A DNA stretch of 64,000 nt from Prosapia bicincta (lineage: Eukaryota > Arthropoda > Insecta > Hemiptera > Cercopidae), in the NCBI GenBank assembly GCA_036971475.1, contig JBAIZL010000008.1, positions 5,464,001 to 5,528,000 of the forward strand, read 5' to 3'. Each line of letters begins with the position of its first letter. The first letter of the stretch is position 1. Under the pieces are notes generated by a model that was given only the letters and a program-made list of their open reading frames with translations, had not been told where the DNA came from and ran no database searches. A program made the translations under genes and the position numbers. Positions 45,007-63,781 of the stretch are shown one piece after another.

Positions 45007-45523
45007 AAGTAGCTTCTGTTGCATCTATATAATAATAGGCCCGAAGTTGTTTCGTTTTGAATAAGTGTAGAATGTCTATAACAGTGCGCAGCAATATTTA
45101 CTTGTTAACAAAAAAAATAAAGAATTCGTTGCATCTAAGTCCTGAAATTTCCTTCGATCAAAACGTAAATATTAGAACATTTCGCACTTTATTTACTTGT
45201 TAAAAAATATGAATGGTTAGTTTTTATTTTTCTGCTGGATATTTATAAGTATAATGATTGAACTCTATAAACAGAATATTAGAAGAGTCTATAATTTACA
45301 ATCAACGTAATAGTGAACTTTCGCAGAATTAAGATTTGTATAAATCAGCTTCTTTACAATTTAAGATATTATAACAAATAAATATATGTTTAGTGGTAGG
45401 AGTACAAGAATCAATACTTCTTTAATTTTAATTTTCTTTATTTTTCCAAACACATAATACAGAATGTTCAATTTAGTAAATCAGTTTATTAATCTTTTGA
45501 ATTTCTCTGTTATTGAAACAAAA

Positions 45524-45817
45524 TTAAATACATACATTATTCAACCCAAAATTATCATTTCCTTCTAAACACATGTACACTTTTCGGATTAGATTTTTAA
45601 AAATAACACAAACACACGTATCTGGTACATCGCAAGATGTGTAAACTGACCATGGACAAGCCGTGTAATGCTGTCTTGTTGTATCGTACTCTGCCAAACC
45701 ATGCCTCTCCATTAAAGACGTTGCTTCCATGATGTAATAATGAGCCAAGGTTTTCCCACACGTACATAGCTTAGGGTTAGCTAAAAGTATTTCGATGTCT
45801 TCGTGAGCTGCCAACAT
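45524..45817 (-). CDS. Small ORF of unknown function, 97 residues
   Basis: Starts at the ATG at 45815-45817; the open frame extends slightly upstream only through a GTG. The product has a CTCGK pair and a later CDVPDTCVC cluster and might bind metal, but no family is recognised. It lies in the repeat-rich left arm of the Polinton-type element, in the same direction as the dUTPase. It could be an accessory gene or a chance frame. Confidence 0.35.
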   Translation of the reverse strand: MLAAHEDIEILLANPKLCTCGKTLAHYYIMEATSLMERHGLAEYDTTRQHYTACPWSVYTSCDVPDTCVCVIFKNLIRKVYMCLEGNDNFGLNNVCI

Positions 45818-46604
45818 AGTGATACGGTTATAAATCTTCACGAGTATTTATACATCTCTAGGATTACTTTCTCTTAGGCTTTAGGTCTATCAAACTTATT
45901 TATACATCTATAGCATTACTTTCTCTTTGGCTTTAGGACTATCAAACTCTGTAAAAAAATATTTCTTCTTCTATTACAATGTACAGGTATAATGATTGAA
46001 CTTTTATAAATAGAATATTAGAAGAGTATATTATTTACAAGAATTATTATTATTTGTGTATAAAGCTTTTTTTTTAAAATTTAGATGTTATAACAAATAA
46101 ATATAACAAACTTGAAGACATTGTTTCTATAGCTTTAGTAGAATTATTGGAACAGTATAATGATTGAAAATTATAAATAGAATATTAGAAGAGTCTATTA
46201 TTTACAAGAATTATTATTTGTGTATAAAGCTTCTTTTTACAAATTTAGATGTTATAACAAATAAATATAATAAACTTGCAGCTTTAACCTTAAGACATTA
46301 TCTCCAAAGTTTTAGTAATTCAATTATATTATGTATTATTATATATTTATTTTTAATTAAAGAAATCAAACTTTATAAATAGAATATTAGAAAATTCCGT
46401 TATTTACAAAGTATGTGATTCTCAACATTCACCAAATAACTCACGCATTATGTGAATCAAAGTCATGAAAACACCTTTAAATTGTTCTTAGTTTCAATGT
46501 TGTTAATTCAAACAATAGATAGGAGTATAAGGAAAATGAATAATATTTAATTTTAATTTTATTTATTTATCTAAACACATAATGGAGTATGTTGCTATAA
46601 TAAT

Positions 46605-47051
46605 TCAATTAATTCCACTTGATCCAAAACCTTTTGAATTTCTCTCTGTCACATCTACACATTTCATTTCATAAAGTTCAGGATAGTAGGCTTTCTCACA
46701 TATCAATTGTGCAATTCTGTCTCCCCTATTTACAATAAAATCTGTATTAGAATGATTAAACAACAACACGCACACATTTCCCGTATAATCTTTATCTATT
46801 ACTCCACCCCCTACAGTTATAAAATTATTTACAGCTAATCCTGATCTAGGTGCTATTCTTCCGTAACATTTATCAGGTAGTTTAATACTAATGTCAGTTT
46901 TTATTAATTGTTTTCCATTTTGTGGAACAACACTTGAATATGCACTTCTTAAATCATATCCTACTGATAGAGGTGAACATCTTTGTGGAGCAAATCCATA
47001 CTCTGATAACATAAAGTATCCTAACTTGACATTTGAAGAACATTCCTCCAT
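46605..47051 (-). CDS. dut: dUTPase
   Basis: A 148-residue trimeric-type dUTP pyrophosphatase, which converts dUTP to dUMP and pyrophosphate and so limits uracil entry into viral DNA. All five family motifs are present in order: VGYDLRSA (about 31), GRIAPRSGLA (about 65), GGGVIDKDYTGNV (about 81), RGDRIAQLI (about 110) and the Gly-rich C-terminal RNSKGFGSSG (about 136), whose Phe/Gly arm closes over the active site. Length is normal for the family and the frame is intact. The ATG at 47049-47051 directly follows a TTTTTTTACAG stretch on the coding strand, so an upstream leader exon is possible. It sits alone on the leftward arm between direct repeats. Confidence 0.95.
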   Translation of the reverse strand: MEECSSNVKLGYFMLSEYGFAPQRCSPLSVGYDLRSAYSSVVPQNGKQLIKTDISIKLPDKCYGRIAPRSGLAVNNFITVGGGVIDKDYTGNVCVLLFNHSNTDFIVNRGDRIAQLICEKAYYPELYEMKCVDVTERNSKGFGSSGIN

Positions 47052-47600
47052 TTCTGTAAAAAAAATAAGAATATTTCTTCTATTACAAAGTTTAATGATT
47101 GAACTTTATAAATAGAATATTAGAAGAGTCTATTAGTTACTAGAATTATTATTTGTGTATAAAGCTTTTTTTTACAAATTTAGATGTTATAACAAATAAA
47201 TATAATAAACTTTAAGACATTGTTTCTATAGCTTTAGTAATTGAATTATATTTATGTATTATTGGAGAAGTATAATGATTGAACTTTATAAATAGAATAT
47301 TAGAAGAGTCTATTAGTTACTAGAATTATTATTTGTGTATACAGCTTTTTTCTTACAAATTTAGATGTTATAACAAATAAATATAATAAACTTTAAGACA
47401 TTGTTTCTATAGCTTTAGTAATTGAATTATATTTATGTATTATTGGAGAAGTATAATGATTGAAAATTATAAACAGAATATTAGAAGAGTCTATTATGTA
47501 CAAGAATTATTATTTGTGTATAAAGCTTTTTTACAAATTTAGATGTTATAACAAATAAATATAATAAATTAATTAAATAAATCAAACTTTATAAATAAAA

Positions 47601-48401
47601 TATTAGAAAGACTCATTATTTACATTTGAACATTCATTAAATAGCTCACGCATTATGTGAATCAAATTCACAATATTTAGTTTATGTTTTTTACATTTTA
47701 AAATGAATGAACAAATAACAATTTAAGATAATAAAAACAAATAAATATAATAAACTTCAGTTTACACTTTAAGGCATTACCTCCAAAGTTTTAGTAATTC
47801 AATCAGAATATTATTTATTTTTAATTAAAGAAATTGAACTTTAAAAATTAAAATATCAGAATAGTCTTATTATTCACAAACTACGTAATTCTGAACTTTC
47901 ACAGAATTATTATTTGTAGGAGAACAACTTATTCAAGATAATATGACAATTAAATTTTTAAACTTCAGTTTTTAGGTTTAAGACATTGTTACTATAGCTC
48001 TAGTAATTCAATTATACTTGTGTATTATTGCAACACATATTATTTGTTTTCAATTAAAGATATTAACCCAAACAATTCTACTACACACTACGTGAAACTA
48101 ATTCGAAACAATATTATTTTTAATTTTAAATACAATACATAGAAAAGAAGTCAGACAGAAAATACAATTGTATTCAATTAAATAAATTTATACAGTAAAT
48201 ACTATTGTTTGAAATTATAAAAAACTTTCTTTCAAAAACTATGCAAATCATTTCATTTATACAAATTTTCATGTTGAAATAGTAAAGTGTTTTTACATTA
48301 CATATTTTGTATAGATAATATCAAAATACTATATTTGTAAGTAATAAAAAATACTCACTGTATTAGTGTTTAGATAAAGCTCCCAATCCAGTCATTTCTC
48401 T
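47601..48401. other. AT-rich spacer in left arm
   Basis: More decayed pieces of the left-arm repeats (TTATAACAAATAAATATAA and similar). No gene is recognised. Confidence 0.45.
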
Positions 48402-48695
48402 TCACTCTTTAATTTCCAAATCAACTGTTCGTTCTTGTTTAGATTTAACAAAAAGCTTCTTTCCTATAATAGCTTCTAAATCTTGATCATTTGAAAATAA
48501 ATTATTATAACGTTTTGGTAGAAAGGCATGAACAGTTTCTCCCTTATTGATAAATTTTACTAATATTGCACGACCGTATTTCGCTTCTACTATTCTTGCT
48601 TCTTTAATCACGTATGGTTCCCCTAACGTAAATGATTGAATAGACACTGTGTCTACACTTGTTGACAAATTGAATTTTTCAATAAGATTTGACAT
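48402..48695 (-). CDS. Small OB-fold-like protein (possible ssDNA-binding)
   Basis: A 97-residue protein with the central phrase YGRAILVKFINKGETVHAFL then PKRYNNLFS, and a C-terminal LFVKSKQERTVDLEI strand. The pattern of a charged loop between two beta strands followed by LPKRY is one I recall from small proteins next to PolB in arthropod Polinton/adintovirus-like elements, and it suggests an OB-fold that binds single-stranded DNA. That function is inferred. It is transcribed leftward, divergent from PolB across about 415 bp. On the coding strand an AATCAGTTTG (an arthropod TCAGT-type initiator) lies about 35 bp before the ATG. Confidence 0.55.
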   Translation of the reverse strand: MSNLIEKFNLSTSVDTVSIQSFTLGEPYVIKEARIVEAKYGRAILVKFINKGETVHAFLPKRYNNLFSNDQDLEAIIGKKLFVKSKQERTVDLEIKE

Positions 48696-49111: not shown

Positions 49112-52100
49112 ATGGCTGTATATCTTGTTTCGAATACGGAAAAGTATATTAAAAAGTATCGTATTAATGGAACTAGGTTTCTTTTTAAATTCAATTTACC
49201 ACCAACTAATGTAAATGAAATTGACTGGATTAGACAAGGACTTAATGATATAATTGATTCAATGAAAAGTAATACGACTGATCAAGATCAACTCGGTTTC
49301 ACCTTGTCAAGTTTGAATTTTAAAAACCGAGAACCGGGGTATGTTTCATTTCGTCCGGCTTCTCAAGTTAATTCTGATATGTTATTTCAGATTTTTGGAG
49401 GCATTATTCAATCTAATTCACCTGGTTTTAGTTCAACCGATACTTTCGAGATTGCCTGTACTAGAGTAAGGGTTCCACGCGGACGAGGGCACATAAGACC
49501 AGGATTTTTTAACAATTTCGACGAGGAATGTCATACGAGAAGGGGAATCGTGGTTATAAAAAATTCCGATTCTCTTTGTTTGCCATGTTCAATTGTAGTT
49601 GCAAAAGCAAATGTTGATAAAGATATCGAATATCCAGCAATAAGACTAAACCGTCGAAACAGACAAACTATAAAAGCACAGCAGTTAATGACTGACGCTA
49701 AAGTACAGATATCAGACACAGGTGCAGGAATAAAAGAGTTACAACAATTTCAAAACTTTCTCAGTGAATATAAAATTACAGTATATGAGTACGGAAACAA
49801 GGGACGTAATATTTTTTTCGAAGGAGAAAATGAAGGTAAAAAAATTAATTTGATACTGTATAAGGGTCATTTTAATGTTATTACAAGTTTAACTAGTGCA
49901 TTTGCTTGTAATTACTATTGTGAATCATGTCACACTCCTTTTGACCACCGTACGAAACATAGATGTTCGGTTACATGTTACTTGTGTAAACGATCTCCAC
50001 CATGCACTTTGAAAGACAATGGTATACAATGTAATGAATGTAATAGAAAATTTAAAAACAGAGATTGTTTTAAATATCATCTCAATGATATCTGTAATGC
50101 TTTAAAAAAATGTCAGTCATGTGATAAAATGATATTTCTGTCTGCACGCTCTTCACCTCATGTGTGTGGCGAGATATATTGCAAAACTTGCAAGTCGTAT
50201 ATGTCTTCATCGCATTTTTGTTACATGAAAATTGATATTCGTAGACCTTTAAATAAAAATTTTCTGTTTATATTTTTTGACTTGGAAACCAGACAAGACG
50301 AACCTCTCGATAATTCTACAAACGTTCATCGAACCACTTTGTGTGTTTCTCAACAATATTGTTATCAGTGTATAGGCAACAATTCTTGTAGTGTTTGTCG
50401 TACAAATGTGTTTAGAAACGACCCAATTGATGAATTTATGTCTTATGTAATGAATGTGAGAAAGAGTTACAAGAAAGTAACAGTTATTGCACATAATGGA
50501 CAGGGTTTCGATTTTCAGTTTATATTGAAGTATGTATTGGAAAAGACTCAATTTATGCCCACTTTGATTACACGTGGTACAAAAATCATTCTGATGGAAA
50601 TAGATAACACAAAGTTTATAGATTCTTTAAACTACATGCCTATGGCTCTATCGAAACTACCAAAGTCTTTCGGACTGTCGTCCGAAAAGAAAAAAGGATA
50701 TTTTCCTCATCTATTTAATACGTTAGCAAATCAATCGTACATAGGTCCGATTCCTCCTATCGAATTATACTGTCCTGATTCTATGATAGATAAAAAGAGT
50801 TACGAATCGTTTGTAAGATGGCATGATGAACAGGTTAGAAATGATTATTTGTTTGACTTTCAAAAAGAAATTTTCGAATACTGTTATTCAGATGTTGACA
50901 TATTAGCTCAGGCATGCATAAAGTTTAGATCGATATTCTTGAGTCTATGTAACGTCGATCCTTTTTTGGAGGCTGTAACTATAGCCAGTGCTTGTAACCT
51001 TGCTTTCAGACGTAAATATTTAAGACCAAATACCATTGGTATTCTACCGAAAAGGGGATATAGGCTTTCAAACAGACATTCTAAAATAGCCTTACAATGG
51101 CTAACGTGGGTGGAAGATCAGAGAGGAATCCATATCGAACACGCTGGTCGAGGATGCGAACGTAAGATAGAAGGATTTATGATAGACGGATATTTTGAAG
51201 GAGAAATATTTGAGTTTCACGGATGTTACTGGCACGGATGTTCCAAGTGCTTCTCTAATGGACGCAACGAACCGCTAGAAGAAGATCCGTCCGATACACT
51301 TAACAACCGATTAGAGAGGACAAATGTAAAAAGAACTAAACTCTTACGTCATCATAGGCTAGTGGAAATGTGGGAATGCGACTTTCTAAGAATGAAGACA
51401 GAAAATTCATCAATGTCATACTTAGATACACATCCTGTTCTTAATATGATACCTCTTAATCCACGTGATGCCTTTTACGGTGGTCGAACGGGTAACACGA
51501 AATCATATTACGCATGTAAGGTTGGAGAGACAATACAGTATATTGACATATGTTCACTCTATCCCTGGGTATGCAAGTACGGAAAGTTTCCCATTGGTCA
51601 TCCTTCAATTCACGTAGGCGACAGAGAGTGCAGACAACGAGGAATGGACACTGAAGGACTTTTAAAGTGCAAAATCCTTCCGCCCTGTGATCTTTATCAT
51701 CCTGTGCTTCCGATAAAACTACACGACAAACTGATGTTTGTTCTCTGTAGAACATGCGCTCAGACATTATCAGAAGACTGTGAACATACTGCCGAAGAAC
51801 GAGTGTTGGTAGGAACTTGGACAATGGATGAAATAAGGAAAGCAATTGAAAAAGGCTATACCATCATAGAAATGTACGAAATGTGGGAGTACGAGATAGC
51901 CAGTTTCGAGAAAGGTAACGGCCTCTTTGTCGAATATATCAATCAGTTCCTGAAAATAAAACAGGAAGCTTCAGGATATCCTGACTGGTGCATCAGCGAA
52001 GAGGAGAGGAAAAAATACGTAGACGATTATTTCGAACACGAAAACATTAGACTGGATTCAATTGAAAAGAATGAAGGACTCAGATCCCTGGCAAAGCTTA

Positions 52101-52828
52101 TGTTGAACTCATTTTGGGGAAAATTCGGACAGAGGGAAAATCAAACAAAAACCGCGATTGTTCGTCAACCCTCGGAACTGTTTAAAATGTTGACATCGCC
52201 TTCGATACAAGTAAACACCATACAAGAGATCAACGAAGACGTGATATTAGTGAACTGGGAGTTTGTCGAAAACGAATGTGACGTAGTGTCTAGCGCTAAT
52301 GTAGTAATTGCCGCTTATACTACTGCCCAGGCTAGACTTAAACTGTACGAATATCTAGATAAATTAGGAAGACAGGTTTTGTATTACGACACGGACAGTG
52401 TGATATATTACCATAGACCAGGAATGCACATGGTAGACACAGGAGACTACTTAGGACAGATGACAAACGAACTTTCGGCTTACGGTCAAGGATCTTACAT
52501 TACAGAGTTTGTATCAGGAGGCCCCAAAACGTACGGTTACAGAGTGTTAGCGACTTCTACAAACTCGATAGAGACTGTCTGTAAAGTGAAAGGATTGACT
52601 CTGAACCTTTGCACAATTGGTTTGGTAAATTTTGCTTCGATCAAAAAAATGATAATATCCAAAGATGATTTCTTGGAAGTGCCCGCTTCTCGTATCCGCA
52701 GAACGAAAGATCGTGAAGTGATTACTGTTAAGGAATCCAAAAATTTTAAAATTACCGGTTTTAAGAGAAAAAGCGAAGGTAAATATGATTCTTTTCCTTA
52801 TGGTTATATTAAAAAAAAACACGATTAA
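49112..52828 (+). CDS. polB: Protein-primed-type family B DNA polymerase
   Basis: About 1238 residues from the ATG at 49112, chosen because a TATA box lies between it and the more upstream open codons. This is the replicase, with 3'-5' exonuclease and polymerase. Visible elements: a Cys/His-rich zinc-binding region (about residues 264-371, several CxxC pairs), Exo I FFDLETR (Asp about 390), Exo II AHNGQGFDFQF (about 460), Exo III YSDVDI (about 591), GCYWHGCSKC (about 710, typical of viral/organellar PolB), motif A DICSLYP (Asp 812), motif B KLMLNSFWGKFG (Lys 995) and motif C YDTDS (Asp 1093). Length and motif order fit Polinton/adintovirus PolB. The frame is uninterrupted. An AATAAA lies at 52832. 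Confidence 0.95.
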   Translation: MAVYLVSNTEKYIKKYRINGTRFLFKFNLPPTNVNEIDWIRQGLNDIIDSMKSNTTDQDQLGFTLSSLNFKNREPGYVSFRPASQVNSDMLFQIFGGIIQSNSPGFSSTDTFEIACTRVRVPRGRGHIRPGFFNNFDEECHTRRGIVVIKNSDSLCLPCSIVVAKANVDKDIEYPAIRLNRRNRQTIKAQQLMTDAKVQISDTGAGIKELQQFQNFLSEYKITVYEYGNKGRNIFFEGENEGKKINLILYKGHFNVITSLTSAFACNYYCESCHTPFDHRTKHRCSVTCYLCKRSPPCTLKDNGIQCNECNRKFKNRDCFKYHLNDICNALKKCQSCDKMIFLSARSSPHVCGEIYCKTCKSYMSSSHFCYMKIDIRRPLNKNFLFIFFDLETRQDEPLDNSTNVHRTTLCVSQQYCYQCIGNNSCSVCRTNVFRNDPIDEFMSYVMNVRKSYKKVTVIAHNGQGFDFQFILKYVLEKTQFMPTLITRGTKIILMEIDNTKFIDSLNYMPMALSKLPKSFGLSSEKKKGYFPHLFNTLANQSYIGPIPPIELYCPDSMIDKKSYESFVRWHDEQVRNDYLFDFQKEIFEYCYSDVDILAQACIKFRSIFLSLCNVDPFLEAVTIASACNLAFRRKYLRPNTIGILPKRGYRLSNRHSKIALQWLTWVEDQRGIHIEHAGRGCERKIEGFMIDGYFEGEIFEFHGCYWHGCSKCFSNGRNEPLEEDPSDTLNNRLERTNVKRTKLLRHHRLVEMWECDFLRMKTENSSMSYLDTHPVLNMIPLNPRDAFYGGRTGNTKSYYACKVGETIQYIDICSLYPWVCKYGKFPIGHPSIHVGDRECRQRGMDTEGLLKCKILPPCDLYHPVLPIKLHDKLMFVLCRTCAQTLSEDCEHTAEERVLVGTWTMDEIRKAIEKGYTIIEMYEMWEYEIASFEKGNGLFVEYINQFLKIKQEASGYPDWCISEEERKKYVDDYFEHENIRLDSIEKNEGLRSLAKLMLNSFWGKFGQRENQTKTAIVRQPSELFKMLTSPSIQVNTIQEINEDVILVNWEFVENECDVVSSANVVIAAYTTAQARLKLYEYLDKLGRQVLYYDTDSVIYYHRPGMHMVDTGDYLGQMTNELSAYGQGSYITEFVSGGPKTYGYRVLATSTNSIETVCKVKGLTLNLCTIGLVNFASIKKMIISKDDFLEVPASRIRRTKDREVITVKESKNFKITGFKRKSEGKYDSFPYGYIKKKHD

Positions 52829-52831
52829 CAG

Positions 52832-52837
52832 AATAAA
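52832..52837 (+). terminator. Poly(A) signal after polB
   Basis: AATAAA starting 4 bp beyond the polB stop codon. Confidence 0.6.
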
Positions 52838-53181
52838 ATCAATTTATAGTTTAATCAAACTGACATTATATAAAATTGGAACCAATGATAAAATAAATTA
52901 CAATCAGAATAACATCACATTAATTTTTAATAAAGGAACATGTAAACATAGCAAAATAAAACAAAAAATTGTTGTTGTTTACATAAACTTTACAAATATG
53001 AGTTATAAATGTAAAGATAGCAACAACAAAAAATATAATTAAAATTCTTATATCATTTTAAAAATACTGTTGTTTACAAAAATCTACAAATCTGGTTTGT
53101 ATGCCTATAGGGGAGTCCGCCAGATAAAATAATGGACAACGCATCAAAGGTTATACCTCTTGGGTGATGTGGAAATTAACC
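52838..53181. other. Spacer between polB and integrase
   Basis: AT-rich. An open frame overlapping the polB end (52785-53042) is low-complexity Asn/Ile/Lys sequence and is not called. A TATATAAG box at 53182 marks the integrase promoter. Confidence 0.5.
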
Positions 53182-53222: not shown

Positions 53223-54137
53223 ATGGATCTGAGATATGCTATTGCAAATGAATTACATAAACCGGCTAGAAGACATTTCAAAACTAGACGTGTAACCTTG
53301 AAAGGCATTCACGATTTATATCAGGCAGACTTGGTAGAGATGATTCCTTATGCTAAACGAAACAGAGGATACAAATACTTACTCACTATGATTAATTGTC
53401 TTACAAAATTTGCGTTTGCGCTTCCTTTAAAATCGAAAACAGGTGTCGAAGTGGCTTCTGCTCTAGATAGTGTTTTGAAAAATCATCCAATGAATTATTT
53501 TCAAACAGACCAAGGTAAAGAATGGTTCAACGTTCATGTTCGAAATTTAATGAAAAAATACAAAATTAATCACTATACTACTTATTCAGATAAAAAAGCT
53601 TCCATAGTTGAAAGATTTAATCGTACGTTGAAAAGTAAAATGTGGAAAGAGTTTACTGCTAGGGGATCGTATGTATGGATAGATATACTGAATAGTTTAG
53701 TAAAATCGTACAATACATCAGTTCATAGAACCATAGGAATGAAACCGATTAGTGTAAGGAAAAAACATGAAACGAATTTATTAAAAAAAATATCTGTTAA
53801 TGTTACGAAACTATTACCCAAATTTAAAGTAGATGATAAAGTAAGAATCTCCAAGTACAAAACAATCTTTGCGAGAGGATATTATCCGAGTTGGTCGAAC
53901 GAAGTATTTTCTGTTTTTGCTGTAAAACCTACAATACCTGTAACGTATGTGTTACAAGATTCTAGAGGTAATATTTTGAAAGGAGGTTTCTATACCGAAG
54001 AAATCAGTAAAGCGAAAATGGGTGATGTTTTTCTTATCGATAAAGTGTTAAAGAGAAAAGGTAATAAAGTTTATGTCAAATGGACAGGTTTTGATAAAAC
54101 ACACAACAGTTGGATCGATAAGAAACAACTTATTTAG
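53223..54137 (+). CDS. int: Retrovirus-like integrase with chromodomain
   Basis: 304 residues. It catalyses strand transfer of the linear element into host DNA. The RNase H-fold catalytic triad is visible: QADLVEM (Asp 36), FQTDQGKEW (Asp 96) and SIVERFNR (Glu 130), with 33 residues between the last two. A Polinton-typical W-rich region follows (YVWIDILNSLVKSYN, then HRTIGMKP). The C-terminus is a chromodomain (VLKRKGNKVYVKWTGFDKTH then SWIDK), which in related elements tethers integration to modified histones. No N-terminal HHCC zinc finger is seen from this start; the upstream codons lack an ATG. The frame is intact. Confidence 0.95.
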   Translation: MDLRYAIANELHKPARRHFKTRRVTLKGIHDLYQADLVEMIPYAKRNRGYKYLLTMINCLTKFAFALPLKSKTGVEVASALDSVLKNHPMNYFQTDQGKEWFNVHVRNLMKKYKINHYTTYSDKKASIVERFNRTLKSKMWKEFTARGSYVWIDILNSLVKSYNTSVHRTIGMKPISVRKKHETNLLKKISVNVTKLLPKFKVDDKVRISKYKTIFARGYYPSWSNEVFSVFAVKPTIPVTYVLQDSRGNILKGGFYTEEISKAKMGDVFLIDKVLKRKGNKVYVKWTGFDKTHNSWIDKKQLI

Positions 54138-54183
54138 TATAAATTATAGAAACAAATACTGATATCATTAGTGTTACATCACA

Positions 54184-54879
54184 ATGCGTACAGAAAAGGC
54201 CCTACAATCTTTTACAATGTCAAATTTTGATAAATATGTAGAGTGTACAAAAACAAAATGCGTCAGACATAGTACACTTTTACCAAATACTATTCGATGT
54301 ATTATTTGTGGACCTTCTAATTGCGGAAAAACAAATGTAGTATTCAATTTATTGTTTGAACCCAATGGGTTGAAGTTTGCTAATGTGTATGTGTTTTCAA
54401 AATCATTACATCAGTCAAAGTATAAACTTTTAGAAAAGGTTTTCTCAGATTCTGAAATCGGCTACTTTTCATACTCAGACAACCAAAGTGTACTTGAACC
54501 CAATGACGTAAGACAAAATTCCGTAGTAATATTCGATGATGTTGCTTGTGAGAAACAAGACAATATTAGAAAATATTTTTCAATGGGCCGTCACAATAAT
54601 GTCGATACTTTCTATTTAGGTCAATCGTACAGTCAAATTCCAAAACAATTGATTCGTGATAATACGAACTTTTTAGTTATATTTAAACAAGACGACCTCA
54701 ATATAAAACATATTTATAATAACCACGTGACTCCTGACATTAAAATATCTGTTTTTAAAGACATCTGTGCTGAGGCATGGAAAAATATTTACGGATTTGT
54801 TGTAATAGATAAAGACAGTGAAAAAGATCAAGGTCGTTACAGAATCGGATTCGATTGTTTTGTAAAAGATTTATTTTAA
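54184..54879 (+). CDS. FtsK/HerA-type DNA packaging ATPase
   Basis: 231 residues. The motor that pumps the genome into the capsid in Polinton-like and other double-jelly-roll viruses. Walker A is CGPSNCGKT (43-50), Walker B is VVIFDD (114-119), and the downstream GQSYSQIPKQLIRDNTN is the sensor/arginine region characteristic of the A32-like clade. The ATG at 54184 follows a TATAAAT at 54138. A second ATG at 54217 is a possible start. It lies directly after the integrase and 32 bp before the next ATG, in the same direction. Confidence 0.9.
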   Translation: MRTEKALQSFTMSNFDKYVECTKTKCVRHSTLLPNTIRCIICGPSNCGKTNVVFNLLFEPNGLKFANVYVFSKSLHQSKYKLLEKVFSDSEIGYFSYSDNQSVLEPNDVRQNSVVIFDDVACEKQDNIRKYFSMGRHNNVDTFYLGQSYSQIPKQLIRDNTNFLVIFKQDDLNIKHIYNNHVTPDIKISVFKDICAEAWKNIYGFVVIDKDSEKDQGRYRIGFDCFVKDLF

Positions 54880-54911
54880 ATGTATTCACTTGTTCACTAT
54901 CAGTTTACAAC

Positions 54912-55766
54912 ATGACGCCCGACGAAGAACAAGTTATCCTTGAGATATCTAGATTGAAAGAGGCTATAAAAAGAAAATACCGTGAAATGAGATTCGGTGA
55001 TGTGGAAAGGGAACGAGTAATGACTAAAAAATACAGTCCCCTTATTAGGGAAATTTCGAAATTACGGAAAGATAAACCTGAGAATGAAGAAATAAAACTT
55101 GAGCCAATTACATCACACTCTACGCCTCTAAAAGAATCATCTAGTGTAAAAGAGTTAATGACTACTCCTAAAGGACAAGAAGAATACAAAGAGACTTTAA
55201 ATACAACCTTTTCTAATCAACTCACACTTTTGTACATGACAAAAATGATTAACGACTCCGATCTGATAGATAATGTATATGGACCGAGAATAGAAGGTAA
55301 TGTTCTTATGGTCGGAGATAAAGAGATTCAGTTTGGCGAAGATGGTGACATTATTATAGCAGGAGAAAATTACAACGGTACCGAAGGACTTTATGAATTA
55401 TTGTTTATGCGTATACCAAGAAAAATATATACGGACGAAGATGTAGAAGCCTATAGAAAAATTTGTAAAAAAACTCATGCTCATAAAGTGAATTACAGTT
55501 TTAGAAATATTATAAATCGAGATTTTAGAAACGATAAATACAAAAATATTATTCAGCATCTGTTTCCCCCGAAAAGGATTGGTAAAGGATACGCTTATTG
55601 GGATAATCCTAACGAATTATGCGATAGGCTGAGACTTTTACTGTCTTCTTACGAAGCTGGTCATACAGGTCATAGAAACGAAATAGCGTCTGTTATAGAA
55701 GAGCTGAGGGAAGCGGGGATTATAAAAGGATGGGGTAATAAGAAAATTAGAACACTAATAAAATGA
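54912..55766 (+). CDS. Conserved Polinton-type protein of unknown function
   Basis: 284 residues from the first ATG (54912); the open frame extends upstream only with non-ATG codons overlapping the ATPase end. N-terminal half is charged and helical (EISRLKEAIKRKYREM, then EISKLRKDK; probable coiled coil). The C-terminal block YWDNPNELCDRLRLLLSSYE then RNEIASVIEELREAGII is a phrase I recall from many uncharacterised arthropod Maverick-linked proteins (possibly the family called DUF8207). A minor virion or assembly role is inferred from its place between ATPase and fibre-like genes. TATCAGTTTA just upstream is a TCAGT-type initiator. Its stop overlaps the next start (ATGA). Confidence 0.75.
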   Translation: MTPDEEQVILEISRLKEAIKRKYREMRFGDVERERVMTKKYSPLIREISKLRKDKPENEEIKLEPITSHSTPLKESSSVKELMTTPKGQEEYKETLNTTFSNQLTLLYMTKMINDSDLIDNVYGPRIEGNVLMVGDKEIQFGEDGDIIIAGENYNGTEGLYELLFMRIPRKIYTDEDVEAYRKICKKTHAHKVNYSFRNIINRDFRNDKYKNIIQHLFPPKRIGKGYAYWDNPNELCDRLRLLLSSYEAGHTGHRNEIASVIEELREAGIIKGWGNKKIRTLIK

Positions 55767-56647
55767 GCGTCGATAAGTTTGGACGTTATTCTAAACCTAA
55801 AGTCGGAGACCCTGTTTCTGAAAATGACATTGTTAATATGCGAACGCTTAAACGGGATTGTTTGACATTCGATAGTTCGAAGAACAAATACTACGCTAAT
55901 GAACTTCCCTTAGGCGGTCTAGGTGAACCTAAAGATATGAACGATGCAGTAACTAAAAAATATATCGAATCTTTTGTTCCCAAAAGTTGTTTAACTTTCA
56001 ATACCGATAAGAATTCATATTTTGCCAATGGTGTTTTGTTGGGTGGATTGGGTGAGCCTAATATCAGAGATGATGCAGTGACCAAAGGTTATCTCGAAAA
56101 AACGTGTTTAACTTTCGATAATGTAAAGAACAAATACTATACTAACGGTTTTGCTATAGGAGGTTTAGGCAAACCTACTGGTCGAAACGATGCTGTGTCT
56201 AAAAAATACCTCGAATCATTTATTCCGAAAGCTTGTTTGATATTCAATGACGAAAAGAATCAATACTATGCTAATGGTATTCAATTGGGTGGATTGGGGG
56301 AACCTATAAATACTGACGATGCGGTAACGAAGGGATATCTGGAAAAGTTAATTCCAGTTAAAATCGAAAATACGTTTTTCTTTGCTAATCATCGTTTGCG
56401 CGATATAGATGCTCCAGAATTTCAGGGAGACGCAGTTAACTTAAAATACTTGGTAGATAATGCTCTTCTTATAACTGGAAAAGAATATGACGGACGATTT
56501 AAACGTATAAGTCACGTGGGATCTGGTAAAGAACCAAATGACGTAGTAGTTTTTTCACAGTTAGCTACCTTGTACAATGATATTCAAATTCGAATTAACT
56601 CTGAAATAGCGATGTTGAGAGAAGAAATTAAAAAAATAATAAATTAA
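55763..56647 (+). CDS. Repetitive fibre-like protein
   Basis: 294 residues built from about seven degenerate repeats. The clear ones read GGLGEPxxxxDAVTKxYxE at about 51, 94, 133 and 176 (spacing 43, 39, 43). Weaker units lie at about 12 (KVGDPVSENDIV), 211 (RLRDIDAPEFQGDAVNLKYL) and 248 (RISHVGSGKEPNDVVVFSQL). Each full unit also has a CLTFDxxKNxYYANG strand. The C-terminus (YNDIQIRINSEIAMLREEIK) looks like a coiled coil. GxP...DAVTKxYV-type repeats are common in trimeric phage tail and capsid fibres, so a host-contact fibre is a reasonable inference. It overlaps the preceding gene by ATGA, suggesting coupled expression. Confidence 0.65.
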   Translation: MSVDKFGRYSKPKVGDPVSENDIVNMRTLKRDCLTFDSSKNKYYANELPLGGLGEPKDMNDAVTKKYIESFVPKSCLTFNTDKNSYFANGVLLGGLGEPNIRDDAVTKGYLEKTCLTFDNVKNKYYTNGFAIGGLGKPTGRNDAVSKKYLESFIPKACLIFNDEKNQYYANGIQLGGLGEPINTDDAVTKGYLEKLIPVKIENTFFFANHRLRDIDAPEFQGDAVNLKYLVDNALLITGKEYDGRFKRISHVGSGKEPNDVVVFSQLATLYNDIQIRINSEIAMLREEIKKIIN

Positions 56648-56678
56648 TTTAAATTATAAAATTAGCTTAGAAAAAAAG

Positions 56679-56687
56679 TATTAAAAG
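56679..56687 (+). promoter_or_regulatory. TATA-like box before PLA2 gene
   Basis: TATTAAAAG about 33 bp upstream of the ATG at 56720. Confidence 0.4.
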
Positions 56688-56719
56688 CATACACTTATAC
56701 GTTTCTGATTAGTAATAAA

Positions 56720-57241
56720 ATGGCATTCAAATGGAAAACTAATGTCAGTCGTAAACGAAAGGTTGTAGGAGGCGGATTGATTTCAAGTGTTTTGAACAAA
56801 GCAATAGATCTATTACCAATCGAATTACATTTACCCACTTATAATTACTGCGGTCCAGGAACAAAATTAAGTAAACGTTTAGCACGTGGAGATAAAGGTA
56901 TAAATGCACTAGATGAAGCCTGCCGTGAACACGATATTACCTATAATAGATTTACCGATTCTCAAAATCGTCGTGAAGCCGACGAAGTTCTAGCGGAAAA
57001 GGCTTGGAAAAGAGTTAAATCCAGTGACGCATCTCTTGGCGAGCGTGCAGCGGCCCTAGCTGTTTCGTCAGCAATGAAAGCGAAATCAAAGTTGGGTGGG
57101 GGTAAAAGACGTAGACGTCGTCGAAACCGTCGTACTCCTCATGACTTAAAACAGCTAGTAAAAAAACTTAAGGGTAAAGGATTATACCTTAAACCATATA
57201 AGGGTCGTGGAGGAAAAAAACAAAAAAAAAAAAATAATTGA
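56720..57241 (+). CDS. Phospholipase A2-domain protein
   Basis: 173 residues with a virion-type (parvovirus VP1-like) PLA2 fold: calcium loop YNYCGPGTKL (41-50) and catalytic helix LDEACREHDITY with His71-Asp72. In densoviruses and related agents such domains breach endosomal membranes during entry. The C-terminal third is very basic (GGGKRRRRRRNRRTP and a Lys-rich end), suggesting DNA or capsid binding. Both ends are intact in this frame, but the stop lies just beyond a run of 13 A, and the protease frame (+1) is already open across this gene's end. See the protease entry and the findings. Confidence 0.85.
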   Translation: MAFKWKTNVSRKRKVVGGGLISSVLNKAIDLLPIELHLPTYNYCGPGTKLSKRLARGDKGINALDEACREHDITYNRFTDSQNRREADEVLAEKAWKRVKSSDASLGERAAALAVSSAMKAKSKLGGGKRRRRRRNRRTPHDLKQLVKKLKGKGLYLKPYKGRGGKKQKKKNN

Positions 57242-57596
57242 ATCGATTCCTATCAGACCATTGACAAATATTGAATTAAAAAGATATGCAAAAGTACTAA
57301 ACATACCTTGGTTCAGAGGAGTTTATATGAGAGATACTCTGCCAATACGTGCATTGAAAAATGAATCGGGCATTGTAAATTTAGACAGTGTTATTGGAAT
57401 TGGCACTCATTGGGTTTGTTACAAAAAAAATGGTAAATCAGTAGAGTACTTTGATAGTTTCGGAAATTTGAGACCACCCCTTGAACTAGCAAAATATTTC
57501 GGTAGGAATGCTAATGTACACTATAATTACAAGAGATATCAGAAAAACAATTCAGTCATTTGTGGACATTTGTGTCTAAAGTTTCTGACGTCATGA
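57162..57596 (+). CDS. Adenain-type cysteine protease, no clear start codon
   Basis: Matures virion proteins in Polinton-like and adenoviral systems. Catalytic residues are visible as THW (His), YFDSFG (Asp) and the NSVICGHLC box (nucleophile Cys in CG), with the usual leading PIRPLTNIELKRYAKVL and FRGVYMRDTLP region. The open frame starts after a stop at 57159 and has only a GTG (57207) until the ATG at 57327. That ATG would remove the conserved leading region. It is in the +1 frame relative to the PLA2 gene, whose end it overlaps across A13 (57222-57234). Slippage, a non-ATG start, splicing or a one-base assembly error are the options. Its stop overlaps the penton start (ATGA). Confidence 0.85.
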   Translation, partial: KNLRVKDYTLNHIRVVEEKNKKKKIIESIPIRPLTNIELKRYAKVLNIPWFRGVYMRDTLPIRALKNESGIVNLDSVIGIGTHWVCYKKNGKSVEYFDSFGNLRPPLELAKYFGRNANVHYNYKRYQKNNSVICGHLCLKFLTS

Positions 57597-58276
57597 GTAT
57601 AGTTTTATCTGGAAATACATCCGTTTTATCTAATGACTTTTTTCCTCCGTATGATGTTTCTACTGGACAATGGGAGATAGGATTCATAGACTTAGCTTCC
57701 TACAACTCGATTCCAAATATCGTAGATGGTATAAATAACGTTTTTCATTACGGAAAGGATAAATACATCACATTGCCAACGGGATCATACGAAATTGAAG
57801 ATATAGAGAGGTACATATTAATGAATTTGGATCCGAGTATTTTCTTTTCGCTACGTCCAAACAATAACACTTTGAAAGCTGAAATAAAATGTTCCGAAGA
57901 AATACATTTCGATAAAAAACATTCTATAGGTAAACTGTTAGGATTCTCTGGTTCTCATTTAGTATCAAATAAAAAACATGTTTCAGACAAACCTGTTGAC
58001 ATCATTAAGGTGAATGTGATTCGTGTTGAGTGCAATATTGTAACTGGATCGTTTATAAATGGTGTCGAATGTCATATTCTACACGAGTTTTTTCCTCAGG
58101 TTCCTCCTGGTTACAAGATCGTGGAACATCCTCCAAATGTAATATATTTACCTGTCAACGTAAAAATAATTCATAACATTACTGTTAGTCTAAAAGATCA
58201 AAACGGAGATATAATAGATTTTCGTGGTGAAACTATATCAGTTAGATTACATTTACGAAATGGGACTAGTATTTAA
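57593..58276 (+). CDS. Penton (minor capsid) protein
   Basis: 227 residues from the ATG at 57593, which overlaps the protease stop; the longer open frame begins with a TTG. The sequence pattern (WEIGFIDLASYNSIPNI, PTGSYEIEDIERYI, LRPNNNTLKAEIK, KVNVIRVECNI, HEFFPQVPPGYKIVEHP, FRGETISVRLHLR) is that of the single-jelly-roll penton of Polintons/adintoviruses, which occupies the capsid fivefold vertices. It is complete. It overlaps the following 47-codon gene by 17 bp and precedes the MCP gene, the usual order in such elements. Confidence 0.85.
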   Translation: MSIVLSGNTSVLSNDFFPPYDVSTGQWEIGFIDLASYNSIPNIVDGINNVFHYGKDKYITLPTGSYEIEDIERYILMNLDPSIFFSLRPNNNTLKAEIKCSEEIHFDKKHSIGKLLGFSGSHLVSNKKHVSDKPVDIIKVNVIRVECNIVTGSFINGVECHILHEFFPQVPPGYKIVEHPPNVIYLPVNVKIIHNITVSLKDQNGDIIDFRGETISVRLHLRNGTSI

Positions 58277-58403
58277 AAAGAGTAAAAAAACAAAAAACAT
58301 CAGTCTACCAAGATCCTTACCAGGATTAACATTAAAAAACGTCAAATTTCTTAGATCTTTAGGTTTTAAAATCGTAAAGAATGGAAGAACTTTTGGGAAT
58401 TGA
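58260..58403 (+). CDS. Small basic protein between penton and MCP (47 residues)
   Basis: ATG at 58260 to TGA ending at 58403, overlapping the end of penton and the first 23 bp of MCP. The product is rich in Lys/Arg with the phrases FKKSKKTKNISLPRSLPGLT and KFLRSLGFKIV. Complete tiling of the penton-MCP gap and the strong basic character argue that it is real. A comparable tiny basic ORF sits beside the hexon gene in some adenovirus-like genomes, where basic peptides condense DNA; a core/DNA-condensing role here is inference only. Confidence 0.6.
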   Translation: MGLVFKKSKKTKNISLPRSLPGLTLKNVKFLRSLGFKIVKNGRTFGN

Positions 58404-59571
58404 CAGCAGTGTCGAATACGACAATACTCTATACAGTATGGAGTATCATACTCATAAACCGTATTCTTCATCAACTTATAATAATAACGATGAGATTCGT
58501 ATACCGATTCATCAACAAGATGTCATTACCGTACCTTTCGAAAGTTTATTACACATAAAGGGCACTGTCAGTGGCAAAAAAGCTAACGGAGAAGAAACTG
58601 AAGTATGTTTAGTAAACAATGCCGCAGCATTTTTTTTCGATGACATTCGTTATGAGATTAATGGTAACGAATTGGACCGTACAAGAAATGTAGGAATCAC
58701 TAGTACCATTAAAAGTATGCTTTCGATTCGTGAACTGGAGAAAAATAAACTGATAAATGCAGGATGGATCGGAGTGGGTAATACAAAAGTAACAAAAGAG
58801 TTTACCATGTCGATTCCTTTAAAAATGTTAATGGGTTTTTTTGAGGATTACAGAAGGGTTGTAGTGGGAGCAAAATACGAACTTGTTTTGTTGCGCTCGT
58901 CATCTGATTTAAACGCAGTTTACAGTGACAATGCAGATTTCGTTGATTTAAAAATAACCAGCATAGCATGGAGAGTTCCACACGTCATCTTGGCTGATCC
59001 AATCCGATTGAAAATTCTGAAAATGATTGAACGCGATGCTCCTATTCATATAGCAATGAGAAAATGGGAATTGATAGAATATCCTTCTGTTCCTAGAACA
59101 AACCGTATATCTTGGACAGTGAAGACAGCCTCCCAAATGGAAAAACCCAGATATGTGATTTTTGCTTTGCAAACAAATCGAAAAAATCAGATAAAAAAGA
59201 ACGCCTCTGAATTTGACGATTGTAAAGTTACAAACGTTAAATTGTATCTCAATTCACAGTATTTTCCATACGATAACATTCATGGGGATATTTCTGTTAT
59301 TTATGATATGTACACTAGTTTTCAAAAATCCTATTACTTTCGTGAATCGTCTCCTTGTTTAGATTTAGATACTTTTATGAATAAAGCTAACTTTTTTGTA
59401 ATTGACTGTTCAAAACAAAACGATTCTGTGAAAACGGGTCCTGTGGACGTAAGATTAGAAATAGAAGCATCTCAAAATATTCCTGAAAATACTTCAGCCT
59501 ATTGTCTAATACTCCATGATTCGCATATTGTTTATACGTTACTCACAGGCTCAGTGAAAAAGATTATGTAA
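58381..59571 (+). CDS. Major capsid protein, double jelly-roll
   Basis: 396 residues, the hexon-type trimer-forming protein of Polinton/adintovirus capsids. Recognisable parts are the N-terminal region SVEYDNTLYSMEYHTHKPYS, the first-barrel phrase FFFDDIRYEINGNELDRTRN followed by GITSTIKSM, the linker AWRVPHVILADP...WELIEYPSVPRTN, and in the second barrel VKTASQMEKPRYVIFALQT, NVKLYLNSQYFPYDN and FFVIDCSKQNDSVKTG. The assignment rests on overall pattern and gene order (just after penton), not on a catalytic motif. The frame is complete, with no stops. Confidence 0.85.
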   Translation: MEELLGIDSSVEYDNTLYSMEYHTHKPYSSSTYNNNDEIRIPIHQQDVITVPFESLLHIKGTVSGKKANGEETEVCLVNNAAAFFFDDIRYEINGNELDRTRNVGITSTIKSMLSIRELEKNKLINAGWIGVGNTKVTKEFTMSIPLKMLMGFFEDYRRVVVGAKYELVLLRSSSDLNAVYSDNADFVDLKITSIAWRVPHVILADPIRLKILKMIERDAPIHIAMRKWELIEYPSVPRTNRISWTVKTASQMEKPRYVIFALQTNRKNQIKKNASEFDDCKVTNVKLYLNSQYFPYDNIHGDISVIYDMYTSFQKSYYFRESSPCLDLDTFMNKANFFVIDCSKQNDSVKTGPVDVRLEIEASQNIPENTSAYCLILHDSHIVYTLLTGSVKKIM

Positions 59572-59574
59572 AAA

Positions 59575-59842: not shown

Positions 59843-60388
59843 ATGGAATCTATGGATGTGGATCGAACATCTTGTTCAGCTTTGCCTGACTTTCCTTTAG
59901 GAATTTTCCTAAAGTCAATAAATTTTTTAAATGCTGAATGTACAAAGTTTGTTGCTACAGGACTTTTTAAACACAAAGATTATGCTCTTGGTGTGCTTAT
60001 ACAAACGAATAAGAAAAAACATATTTTTTTGTCTTATATGGAATTTAACGAATTTCTGACTAAAATTCCTCAAGTAGTAGTAGATGGAAATCAACGTAAG
60101 TTTTCAATGATGAAAGGTAACATTACGCTAAAAAAATGTTTTGGAAAACATTATATCAGTTTGTATGACGGTCATAATACTGCTACTCTCAATATCAACG
60201 AATGGACTTTACTCATAAATACTATTCCTTTGATAACACGAAGAATCATGGAACTATTTTATAATGAACCTGAACTAATATCTTACATCATTGACTGTAT
60301 GAACACAGATGAATTAATATCAAGTACTCTTCCTGAAGCTGATAAATTGTACGAAGAAGTAGCACTGTTTAAAAAATATGTAAGTTAA
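59843..60388 (+). CDS. Unknown Polinton-linked protein, 181 residues
   Basis: An intact ORF after MCP. No family is recognised. The sequence is of mixed alpha/beta type, with DFPLGIFLKSINFLNAECTK near the start, a basic central segment (QRKFSMMKGNITLKKCFGKHY) and an acidic C-terminus (STLPEADKLYEEVALF). No signal peptide or membrane segment is evident. Its last 48 bp and about 100 bp of 3' flank are duplicated about 206 bp downstream. An AATAAA at 60394 follows its stop. It is probably an accessory gene, possibly expressed from the TATA repeats in front. Confidence 0.6.
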   Translation: MESMDVDRTSCSALPDFPLGIFLKSINFLNAECTKFVATGLFKHKDYALGVLIQTNKKKHIFLSYMEFNEFLTKIPQVVVDGNQRKFSMMKGNITLKKCFGKHYISLYDGHNTATLNINEWTLLINTIPLITRRIMELFYNEPELISYIIDCMNTDELISSTLPEADKLYEEVALFKKYVS

Positions 60389-60393
60389 AAAAC

Positions 60394-60399: not shown

Positions 60400-60546
60400 T
60401 TATTTTACAAACTTTCTATCGAAGCTTCTTTTATTTTTCTTACAAGTCTTGTTCTATTTTAAAAATAATATAAAATATTAATAAATAAATAAATAGTAAA
60501 TATAATAATAAATCAGTTAATATAATAATTTAACAAAAATTATATT

Positions 60547-60703
60547 GATAAATTGTACGAAGAAGTAGCACTGTTTAAAAAATATGTAAGTTAAAAAACA
60601 ATAAATTATTTTACAAACTTTCTATCGAAGTTTCTTTTATTTTTCTTACAAGTCTTGTTCTATTTTAAAAATAATATAAAATATTAATAAATATATGTTT
60701 ATA
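60547..60703 (+). pseudogene. Duplicated 3' tail of the 181-residue ORF
   Basis: Repeats 60341-60497 almost exactly (GATAAATTGTACGAAGAAGT onward), including the last codons, stop and poly(A) signal, at a spacing of 206 bp. There is no start. It may provide a second poly(A) signal but no protein. Confidence 0.85.
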
Positions 60704-60835
60704 ATAAATAGTAATTATAATAACAAAAATTATATTTAAGAATAAAAACACATAAAAGATTACAATTTTTGATAAAGGTATCTTTAACATTGAATATTGT
60801 ATTGAGAGGCTGTTTCTGACATGAATGTATCTCTT

Positions 60836-62390: not shown

Positions 62391-62500
62391 CCAGTTCCAA
62401 CCCTGGAAAAACACAGAGGAAAAGTCTTTATAAATAAGAGATAAAATATTATTATGTCATTTACTTGTAGTACTTCAATATGGTAGGAACATTTTTTTGG
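61455..62500 (+). repeat. Three copies of the IAP 5' flank and first codons
   Basis: CAAGACTTGTAATGTGGGCA...GTAGTACTTCAATATGGTAGGAAC occurs starting at about 61453, 62230 and 62371. Only the third continues into the open frame at 62480. In the first two, ATGGTAGGAACTTTTTTTT runs into an A-run after about five codons. Confidence 0.8.
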
Positions 62501-62968
62501 ACAGATTCTCTTTCTATTGAAAAAACTGTTTTTAATGCTTATTCACTATACAATGAGCGGTTAAAGACCTATACCACATGGGAGGGAATATCTAACGAAA
62601 ATATAAATCCTATACGTTTGAGTGAAGCTGGGTTTTTTTATACTGGAAAAGACGATAAAACCATATGTTTTGTATGTGCTGGTGGACTTAAAGAATGGTC
62701 ACATAACGATGATCCAATTAAAGAGCACGTTTTGCATTTTAGTTCATGTAAATATGCAACAGCTGTGTTGAATGCAATTAAAACCAAACCAATAGAAGAG
62801 AAAGAAGAAGATCCATTTTTATGCAAGATATGTTGTACGAATGAAATGGAAATCGCTAGTTTACCTTGCGGACATATATTTTCGTGTACTGAGTGTTCAT
62901 TGGAATTACAAGATTGTAGTGTGTGTAGAAAACGAATCTTAAGTAGTATTAGAATTTATATTTCTTGA
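62480..62968 (+). CDS. iap: BIR-RING inhibitor-of-apoptosis protein
   Basis: 162 residues with one BIR and a C-terminal RING. The BIR runs from RLKTYTTW through SEAGFFYTGKDDKTICFVCA to the zinc ligands CFVC, HVLHF and SSCKYA. The RING begins CKICCTNEMEIASLPCGH and ends CSVCRKRI, a C3HC4 pattern. Such proteins bind caspases or their antagonists and act as E3 ubiquitin ligases; baculovirus IAPs are the best known viral case. The product is shorter than host IAPs, which usually have two or three BIRs. It is complete, has its own ATG, and is followed by AATAAA at 62980. Capture from an insect host or virus is likely. Confidence 0.92.
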   Translation: MVGTFFWTDSLSIEKTVFNAYSLYNERLKTYTTWEGISNENINPIRLSEAGFFYTGKDDKTICFVCAGGLKEWSHNDDPIKEHVLHFSSCKYATAVLNAIKTKPIEEKEEDPFLCKICCTNEMEIASLPCGHIFSCTECSLELQDCSVCRKRILSSIRIYIS

Positions 62969-62979
62969 TGTATGTGTTC

Positions 62980-62985
62980 AATAAA
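62980..62985 (+). terminator. Poly(A) signal after IAP
   Basis: AATAAA 11 bp beyond the IAP stop. Confidence 0.7.
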
Positions 62986-63166
62986 GCTATTCTGACAAGC
63001 AATCTCTATTTTTATTTATATTCTACTAAATGTATTGTGTAAAGCAATTAATATTGACCAATATATAGTTTAATAATATTATTTAAAAAAGATATTGACT
63101 TATAAATCATTTAGGTTTTTTTTTAAATAATAATTTTAGTATTTGTTTTTAGGTGTAGAACGCAGC

Positions 63167-63620
63167 ATGAAAGCAGTGATTGAATTTCAAGCGTTTTACG
63201 ACAAACATAATAATTATATTCCCAAAGAATTTGCTATCTTTAAGATCTGTTACAATCTTCAAGTCCCCGTACAAATTTAATCAGCATAAACAAACCACAT
63301 ATTGGTTATAGAACCATTACCATTCTATTGACTGGAACGAGGGAGAGATACCTTATGACGAAAATACTATTAGAGACCTGTTGAAGCCATTTTCTATTAT
63401 ATACAGCAAAGAATCAGAAAAAAAGTCAAGTTTCTAAAAAAAGTTTCATACTAATGTACGTGATATGCCATGTACAACTGTTTCCAATAAAACCTATAAA
63501 TCAATAGAATGTGTTTTGCCTCAGCATAATTTAGGAAAATATAAGTGTGCATTAAACATTGCAAAATTCAATTATGATTTATATATAAAATTTTATTTAA
63601 TTTCTTATTGTTTTCTTTAA
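63167..63620 (+). pseudogene. Broken copy of an uncharacterised insect element protein
   Basis: Pieces in different frames, with stops between, read as one protein in order: FQAFYDKHNNYIPKEFAIF, then SIDWNEGEIPY with the following DLLKPFSIIY, then TNVRDMPCTT and YKCALNIAKF. The pattern (F-x-x-x-N-N-x-(Y/F)-I-x-K-E-x-A, H-x-I-x-W-x-x-G-x-I-P-Y, N-V-x-D-M-P-C) is one I recall from recurrent uncharacterised proteins of insect mobile elements and viruses. Function is unknown to me; a nuclease fold is only a guess. At least two frameshifts and internal stops make it non-functional. Confidence 0.55.
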
Positions 63621-63781
63621 AATTTTTTTGTGTTTATAATTTATATCTAAAATAAACTTTACTTACCTTTTCAATATTGCGGCACAAATATGAAAGTATT
63701 TCCTTAGTTTTCTTTGTCGTAAATAGCAACTGACTATCTGAAAACATACATTCTATAAAGCAAGCCAATTCCTTTCTCGAT
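63621..63781. other. AT-rich spacer
   Basis: No gene seen. It leads into the 79-bp repeats. Confidence 0.4.

What the first reader, a model, noticed from the sequence alone, without database searches (positions are those of the whole stretch)
45020..63640. Gene-complete Polinton/adintovirus-type element with intact core genes
PolB, integrase, ATPase, protease, penton and MCP are all uninterrupted in an otherwise decayed repeat landscape. Added cargo is dUTPase, PLA2, IAP, a fibre-like protein and an OB-like protein. Intactness suggests a recent insertion, an active element, or a virus able to leave the genome. This combination on one element is the best candidate for a new system in this window.
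Basis: partly seen in the sequence, partly recalled or inferred. Interest (0 to 1): 0.9.

Follow-up and report, generated by a model that had tools for sequence, protein, structure and literature searches.

The report
Young virus-like Polinton in insect genome
A 23-kb virus-like DNA element of the Polinton (adintovirus) kind sits freshly inserted in an insect-like genome beside dozens of close copies, many of them a shortened form that has lost the polymerase gene but kept the capsid gene; the element is of a known kind, but its recent spread and its capsid genes under selection make it a good place to ask whether animal Polintons live as viruses.

Summary
Observation mostly right, boundaries wrong, kind known. 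The element is 44731-67403 in window coordinates (22,673 bp; the right 3.4 kb lie outside the window). It has 657-bp terminal inverted repeats without mismatch, 5'-AG ends and a TATATA target duplication. PolB, integrase, A32/FtsK ATPase and double-jelly-roll MCP are open and identified by profile or fold; the N-terminal part of PolB has an OTU fold. Protease and penton frames are open but have no family match, and the protease has no ATG before its conserved core. One accessory gene is a pseudogene in the window and in 6 of 6 other family A copies tested. New here: the genome has at least 67 places with an MCP of this family. Ten, the window's among them, have PolB and MCP both open. Forty places share one 3.1-kb PolB deletion; beside them lie 37 MCP copies, 32 open and full length. 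The deleted form outnumbers the PolB-complete rows found (13) and needs polymerase in trans (inference). Between the two subfamilies MCP and penton show 32 synonymous against 9 non-synonymous differences, so capsid genes were under recent purifying selection. Verdict: new member of a known kind, young, probably still mobile.

The parts
44731..45387 (+). left terminal inverted repeat (657 bp, 5'-AGTAGAG...), identical to the right one at 66747-67403, which lies outside the window (L010)
44725..44730 (.). 6-bp target duplication TATATA (inside a TA run; second copy directly right of 67403)
45524..45841 (-). open frame of 105 aa, function unknown
   Evidence: no match
46605..47051 (-). dUTPase (PF00692, E 2.1e-42)
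47088..47568 (.). 181-bp tandem array, 2.7 copies
48402..48695 (-). 97-aa small protein ('OB-like' untested); 32% identical counterpart in family B
49112..52828 (+). PolB (PF03175, E 1.4e-47; frame open from 48902); OTU fold in residues 131-265 of the ATG form
53223..54137 (+). integrase: rve core (E 2.2e-9) and C-terminal chromodomain-like part (below Pfam cut-off); frame open from 53160
54184..54879 (+). A32/FtsK-type packaging ATPase (PF04665, E 1.6e-7)
54855..55766 (+). 303-aa frame of unknown function, 59% identical in family B
55763..56647 (+). fibre-like protein with repeats resembling phage tail-fibre shafts
   Evidence: PHROG tail fibre E 1.9e-6; family B counterpart YadA_stalk 1e-13
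56720..57241 (+). phospholipase A2 of the parvovirus type (PF08398, E 1.4e-14) with basic tail; ends at an A-rich run of variable length
57207..57596 (+). adenain-like protease by position and recalled His/Asp/Cys motifs; no ATG before the conserved core
57593..58276 (+). penton-like minor capsid protein by position only (frame open from 57560)
58381..59571 (+). double-jelly-roll major capsid protein (PF21738, E 2.5e-109)
59843..60388 (+). 181-aa protein of unknown function, 62% identical in family B
62480..62968 (+). inhibitor of apoptosis (BIR E 2.8e-20, RING E 9.5e-11)
63168..63590 (+). pseudogene of an accessory gene that is open in one family B copy; interrupted in the window and in 6 of 6 other family A right arms tested
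63782..64000 (.). 79-bp tandem array, cut by the window end (number of units differs between copies)

Best explanation
The stretch 44731-67403 is a recently inserted Polinton/adintovirus-type element with its core frames open. Likely cycle: integrase joins linear DNA to a 6-bp staggered cut (shown by footprint: TIR plus 6-bp duplications; enzyme action inferred); PolB copies the linear form by protein priming from the TIR ends (inferred from family); MCP, penton, protease and ATPase build and fill a capsid (inferred; MCP and penton shown to be under recent purifying selection); PLA2 would help membrane escape and IAP would delay cell death (inferred from family knowledge). The genome also holds a burst of a PolB-deleted form that keeps the MCP and must have been copied with PolB from other elements (deletion and spread shown, helper inferred).
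Confidence: 0.9

Rival explanations
1. A plain self-synthesizing transposon: spread is intragenomic only, capsid genes are carried along without being used.
For: Copies at many sites in one genome; a polymerase-deleted form also spreads, which shows copying where both forms are present; no particle evidence.
Against: Capsid genes differ between subfamilies almost only at synonymous sites and stay 72-74% identical to family B (MCP, penton) where synonymous sites are near or at saturation.
Confidence: 0.25
2. An endogenous virus whose source is still an exogenous virus of the host: the copies are repeated germline entries of one or a few circulating strains.
For: Near-identity of copies, TIR identity, selection on capsid genes.
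Against: A PolB-deleted form with one shared junction at 40 places and a shared pseudogene fit copying from within the same pool; no matching free-virus contig was found in IMG/VR with the MCP peptides, a weak test.
Confidence: 0.35
3. The many PolB-deleted copies are segmental duplications, not insertions.
For: They share one junction; one site has two junctions 2.1 kb apart (C79:4699085 and 4701196).
Against: Flanking pieces of the eight 98%-group copies fetched (7 carry the junction) are unrelated to one another apart from one 105-bp and one 275-bp stretch, and the copies lie on many contigs.
Confidence: 0.05
4. Assembly or contamination artefact (a virus contig joined to host sequence).
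For: None found.
Against: Both junctions lie inside a 66-Mb contig and other copies have their own 6-bp duplications.
Confidence: 0.02

Closest known systems
Adintoviruses (proposed Adintoviridae; alpha/beta), as defined in PMC11071296 (passages read)
   Same: PolB with N-terminal OTU-like domain, MCP (hexon), rve integrase with chromodomain-like tail; [quoted passage not shown]
   Different: Alpha or beta class was not settled here; no free genome known; 22.7 kb is longer than the 13.3-14.6 kb Drosophila-associated contigs of PMC8363768 (passages)
Mavericks of vertebrates, PMC8097293 (passages read)
   Same: TIRs, 6-bp target duplications, core genes under purifying selection, mix of intact and defective copies
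   Different: There most copies (96%) are defective and the maximum is 38 intact per genome; here the family is young and a single PolB-deleted form is the most numerous young form seen
Unnamed proteins of hoppers (Macrosteles, Homalodisca, Lycorma) and beetles (Diabrotica, Photinus, Pyrocoelia, Exocentrus)
   Same: MCP 52-62% identical (hoppers); first 480 residues of PolB 53-63% (Macrosteles, some over short stretches) and 37-44% (beetles)
   Different: No annotation of a whole element was available to compare
Virophages and polinton-like viruses of protists
   Different: Sequence identity about 10%

Membership tests
Polinton/Maverick (adintovirus) | Viral/organellar-type protein-primed PolB | tested here: met
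   PF03175 E 1.4e-47; priming itself not tested
Polinton/Maverick (adintovirus) | OTU-like domain in the N-terminal part of PolB | tested here: met
Polinton/Maverick (adintovirus) | rve integrase | tested here: met
   PF00665 37.9 bits, cut-off 32.6
Polinton/Maverick (adintovirus) | C-terminal chromodomain on the integrase | tested here: inconclusive
   PF00385 E 2.1e-4, 21.6 bits under the cut-off 25.1, at the expected place; also under the cut-off in family B
Polinton/Maverick (adintovirus) | Double-jelly-roll MCP | tested here: met
   PF21738 E 2.5e-109; fold
Polinton/Maverick (adintovirus) | FtsK/A32 packaging ATPase | tested here: met
   PF04665 E 1.6e-7, 31.5 bits, cut-off 22.8
Polinton/Maverick (adintovirus) | Adenain-type protease | tested here: inconclusive
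   No family match; motifs recalled only
Polinton/Maverick (adintovirus) | Penton (single jelly roll) | tested here: inconclusive
   No family match; not folded
Polinton/Maverick (adintovirus) | Long TIRs with 5'-AG ends (5'-AG recalled) | tested here: met
   657 bp, 0 mismatches
Polinton/Maverick (adintovirus) | 6-bp target site duplication | tested here: met
   12 of the 15 copies with a TIR match, of 27 examined
Adintovirus class alpha or beta | Clade of PolB and hexon with the named reference genomes | not tested
   I had no reference sequences to compare; PMC8502044 is not held
Adintoviridae as virus | Virions | not testable with these tools
   No reads or particles available
Non-autonomous (helper-dependent) element, for the A2 copies | Lacks its replication gene yet multiplied at unrelated sites | tested here: met
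   40 places with the PolB-deletion junction; flanks of 7 such copies unrelated apart from short stretches; TIR/TSD of this form not examined

The most novel reading that the evidence does not exclude
The animal Polinton has its own satellite: a PolB-deleted lineage that keeps and needs capsid genes, multiplies only when a complete element supplies polymerase (and perhaps integrase), and is passed on through capsids built from its own genes, much as satellite viruses or defective interfering genomes use a helper. Its recent burst (36 copies with almost identical MCP, 32 of them beside the deletion junction) outnumbers the PolB-complete rows found.
Probability: 0.25. Interest if true: 0.75.

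Novelty: new member of a known kind. Interest (0 to 1): 0.5.

Why it matters
Whether animal Polintons still make particles is open (PMC8097293, abstract and passages). This genome has copies with PolB and MCP open, a very recent burst and capsid genes that changed almost only silently between two young subfamilies, so the question can be tested by looking for particles, excised DNA and transcripts in one insect. The polymerase-deleted, capsid-keeping form helps to separate the two explanations: a transposon has no use for capsids, a virus does.

Tried and rejected
Phage records with MCP and with the fibre protein: no match. IMG/VR scan with MCP peptides: 11 pattern matches, none confirmed. PDB by sequence with MCP: none. 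Rfam and tRNA: nothing. NCBIfam: none of 7 proteins matched. BFVD fold search with MCP listed NCLDV, adomavirus, virophage, one MELD-virus and one 'Adintovirus sp.' row among its 50 rows, at 7-15% identity, so it did not settle the class.

Head-to-head MCP pair at C313:36337361/36345473: suspected palindromic replication product; the stretch read (L074; 12,000 bases asked, 10,000 given) shows one copy broken near the MCP start, 2.6 kb of other sequence and a second copy, so a rearranged pair.

First count misled me: 97 of 105 scored MCP rows are open and full length or nearly so, which looked like about 100 complete elements; PolB rows and the deletion junction then showed that 37 of 67 family A MCP rows lie beside the PolB deletion and 12 beside a full-length PolB. 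For 18 of 67 neither was found in the scored rows; a frameshifted PolB would fall below the scored limit, so these are undecided. The pairing goes by nearness (12 kb; strand not demanded for the junction).

Selection: MCP and penton only, one window copy against three A2 copies that are nearly alike, so in effect one comparison; the 181-aa gene was gapped and not counted (one of three A2 copies, L075, has stops in it when read along the alignment). The A1-A2 distance includes time before the deletion, so it does not show selection inside the deleted form. 25/246 against 9/942 is for L075 and L076; L077 gave 25/247 and 10/941; penton is 8/146 in L075 and 7/146 in the other two. Divergence between A1 and A2 is uneven (84-90% around PolB, 97.6% from 53760 to 57065), which suggests recombination.

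Literature: 9 searches. No paper on a capsid-keeping, PolB-deleted Polinton was seen in the listings (titles and abstract starts only); this is no proof of absence. Passages were read in PMC11071296, PMC8363768, PMC11071308, PMC8097293, PMC12910113; PMC4028283 was searched for five terms without a hit.
Full report
Boundaries. The window is G000:C350:5464001-5528000 of a 2.2-Gb assembly. Comparing end pieces of seven family A copies, the window's included, places the left end at 44731 and the right end at window coordinate 67403, 3.4 kb outside the window. The two ends are inverted repeats of 657 bp without a mismatch. The flanking duplication is TATATA within a TA run. In 27 family A copies whose expected ends were fetched, 15 had a TIR match; 12 of the 15 have a 6-bp duplication (5 found by script, 7 read by me from the printed ends), one matches in 5 of 6 bases, one has an 89-bp duplication, and one is unresolved. 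TIR identity in the other copies lies between 98.4 and 100%, except 92.5% in L033/L034 (48 gap positions) and 87.3% over 330 bp in the unresolved L049/L050. The other 12 showed no TIR at the expected place: 7 are PolB-deleted and shorter, 5 are unexplained.

Copies. MCP against the own genome gave 105 scored rows of 1,551 candidates: 67 rows of family A (91-100% identity; 63 full length, 59 of them open) and 38 of family B (72%; residues 1-395 of 396, 38 of 38 open) (my sorting of its table, family A typed again). PolB gave 13 full-length A-type rows (11 open), three broken or partial ones and 20 rows of another family at 82-84% (36 scored of 1,999 candidates). Ten copies, the window's included, have PolB and MCP both open; other genes were not counted across copies.

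The deleted subfamily. One copy of the 97-98% group (L078) joins window 49776 to 52868, losing most of PolB; its integrase is also interrupted by an insert ending in poly-A. Seven further copies of that group show the same junction. A 601-base query over the junction has 40 full-length matches at 93-100% identity (310 candidates, 40 scored). Of these, 38 lie near a scored MCP row, which makes 37 MCP copies: 32 open and full length, 2 with stops, 3 partial. MCP DNA of this group is almost uniform: 36 of 40 scored rows score between 2119 and 2143 bits, the self-match being 2143, about five differences at most by my estimate; 32 of these 36 lie beside the junction. Flanks of eight copies of the 98% group (seven with the junction) are unrelated to one another apart from one 105-bp and one 275-bp stretch. 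So a form without its polymerase was copied to dozens of places. It needs PolB from elsewhere; which element gives it is not known. Its TIRs and target duplications were not read, and its other capsid genes were read in three copies only (penton open in 3 of 3).

Selection. Window against three copies of the deleted subfamily: penton 7-8 synonymous and 0 non-synonymous differences; MCP 25 and 9-10; for penton and MCP together (L076) Fisher p 3.7e-15. In effect this is one comparison of two lineages. Among L001-L008 (L001 is the window's own copy) differences are few (99.7-100% in MCP) and one of eight pentons has a stop, as expected for young copies. Families A and B keep 59-75% protein identity in nine of the twelve genes compared (fibre 41%, IAP 50%, the 97-aa protein 32%), with synonymous sites near or at saturation (PolB of B only in part). 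Vertebrate Mavericks were read in the same way by others (PMC8097293, passages). This supports use of the capsid genes in the recent past; it does not show particles.

Kin and host. Of the 120 MCP relatives listed (of 1,742), five bear species names, all hoppers (Homalodisca 2, Macrosteles 2, Lycorma 1); of 59 PolB relatives, 13 are Macrosteles and 4 are beetles. Families A and B are sisters in the MCP tree (SH-aLRT 99, quick search). A (TAACC)n array in the window is the arthropod telomere repeat (recalled). The host is therefore probably a hopper-like hemipteran; this is inference.

Cargo changes. Family B has an IAP and a RING protein; no dUTPase-like frame is among those listed for the left arm read, of which 1.6 kb were not fetched. 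One of three B copies (L070) carries an extra matrixin-type metalloprotease (Peptidase_M10 E 3.2e-33) between fibre and PLA2, in two overlapping frames. How common it is could not be counted, as the search did not complete.

Verdict. The finding is a real, young Polinton/adintovirus-type element of a known kind with its core frames open. The interest lies in its recent burst and in the capsid-keeping, PolB-deleted form.

Noticed in passing
L078 (C79:4231000-4236900) and 40 places in G000: PolB-deleted, capsid-keeping subfamily with one shared junction; the most numerous young form seen.
   Followed up: partly
L070:1001-2378: Extra matrixin/hemopexin-like metalloprotease cargo in one of three family B copies, split over two frames.
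   Followed up: partly
L013/L014 (C79:27548927 copy): 89-bp perfect direct duplication at the ends instead of 6 bp.
   Followed up: no
window 57200-57240 and L001, L003-L007: A-rich run between PLA2 and protease differs in length between copies; the protease has no ATG of its own in the window. Slippage or a fused product is possible, or assembly noise.
   Followed up: partly
G000, 20 places (e.g. C340:55696407): A further family with PolB at 82-84% identity, 1,407-aa open frame in 18 of 20; its capsid genes were not seen.
   Followed up: no
L072:4977-5999 and L069:3-188: Family B has an additional open frame between ATPase and the 303-aa homologue, no Pfam match; it looked like a glycosyltransferase to me (recalled, untested).
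   Followed up: no
L018, L019/L020: Copies whose TIRs have a different outer part but still end in AGTAGAGA (L019/L020); a TIR variant.
   Followed up: no
window 60860-62400: Large direct duplication (about 780 bp) and repeats between the 181-aa gene and the IAP gene.
   Followed up: no
window 23699-24525: 827-bp (TAACC)n array, arthropod telomere repeat (recalled) inside a contig.
   Followed up: no
window 34366-38772, 39826-41686, 2814-4132, 8022-10430: Large satellite-like tandem arrays (49-, 20-, 24- and 72/215-bp units).
   Followed up: no
window 19671-20528 and 44044-44559: Fragments that look like Penelope-like retroelements (recalled motifs, no search).
   Followed up: no
window 26393-28699: Open frame of 768 aa, probably a host gene exon; no NCBIfam match.
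   Followed up: no
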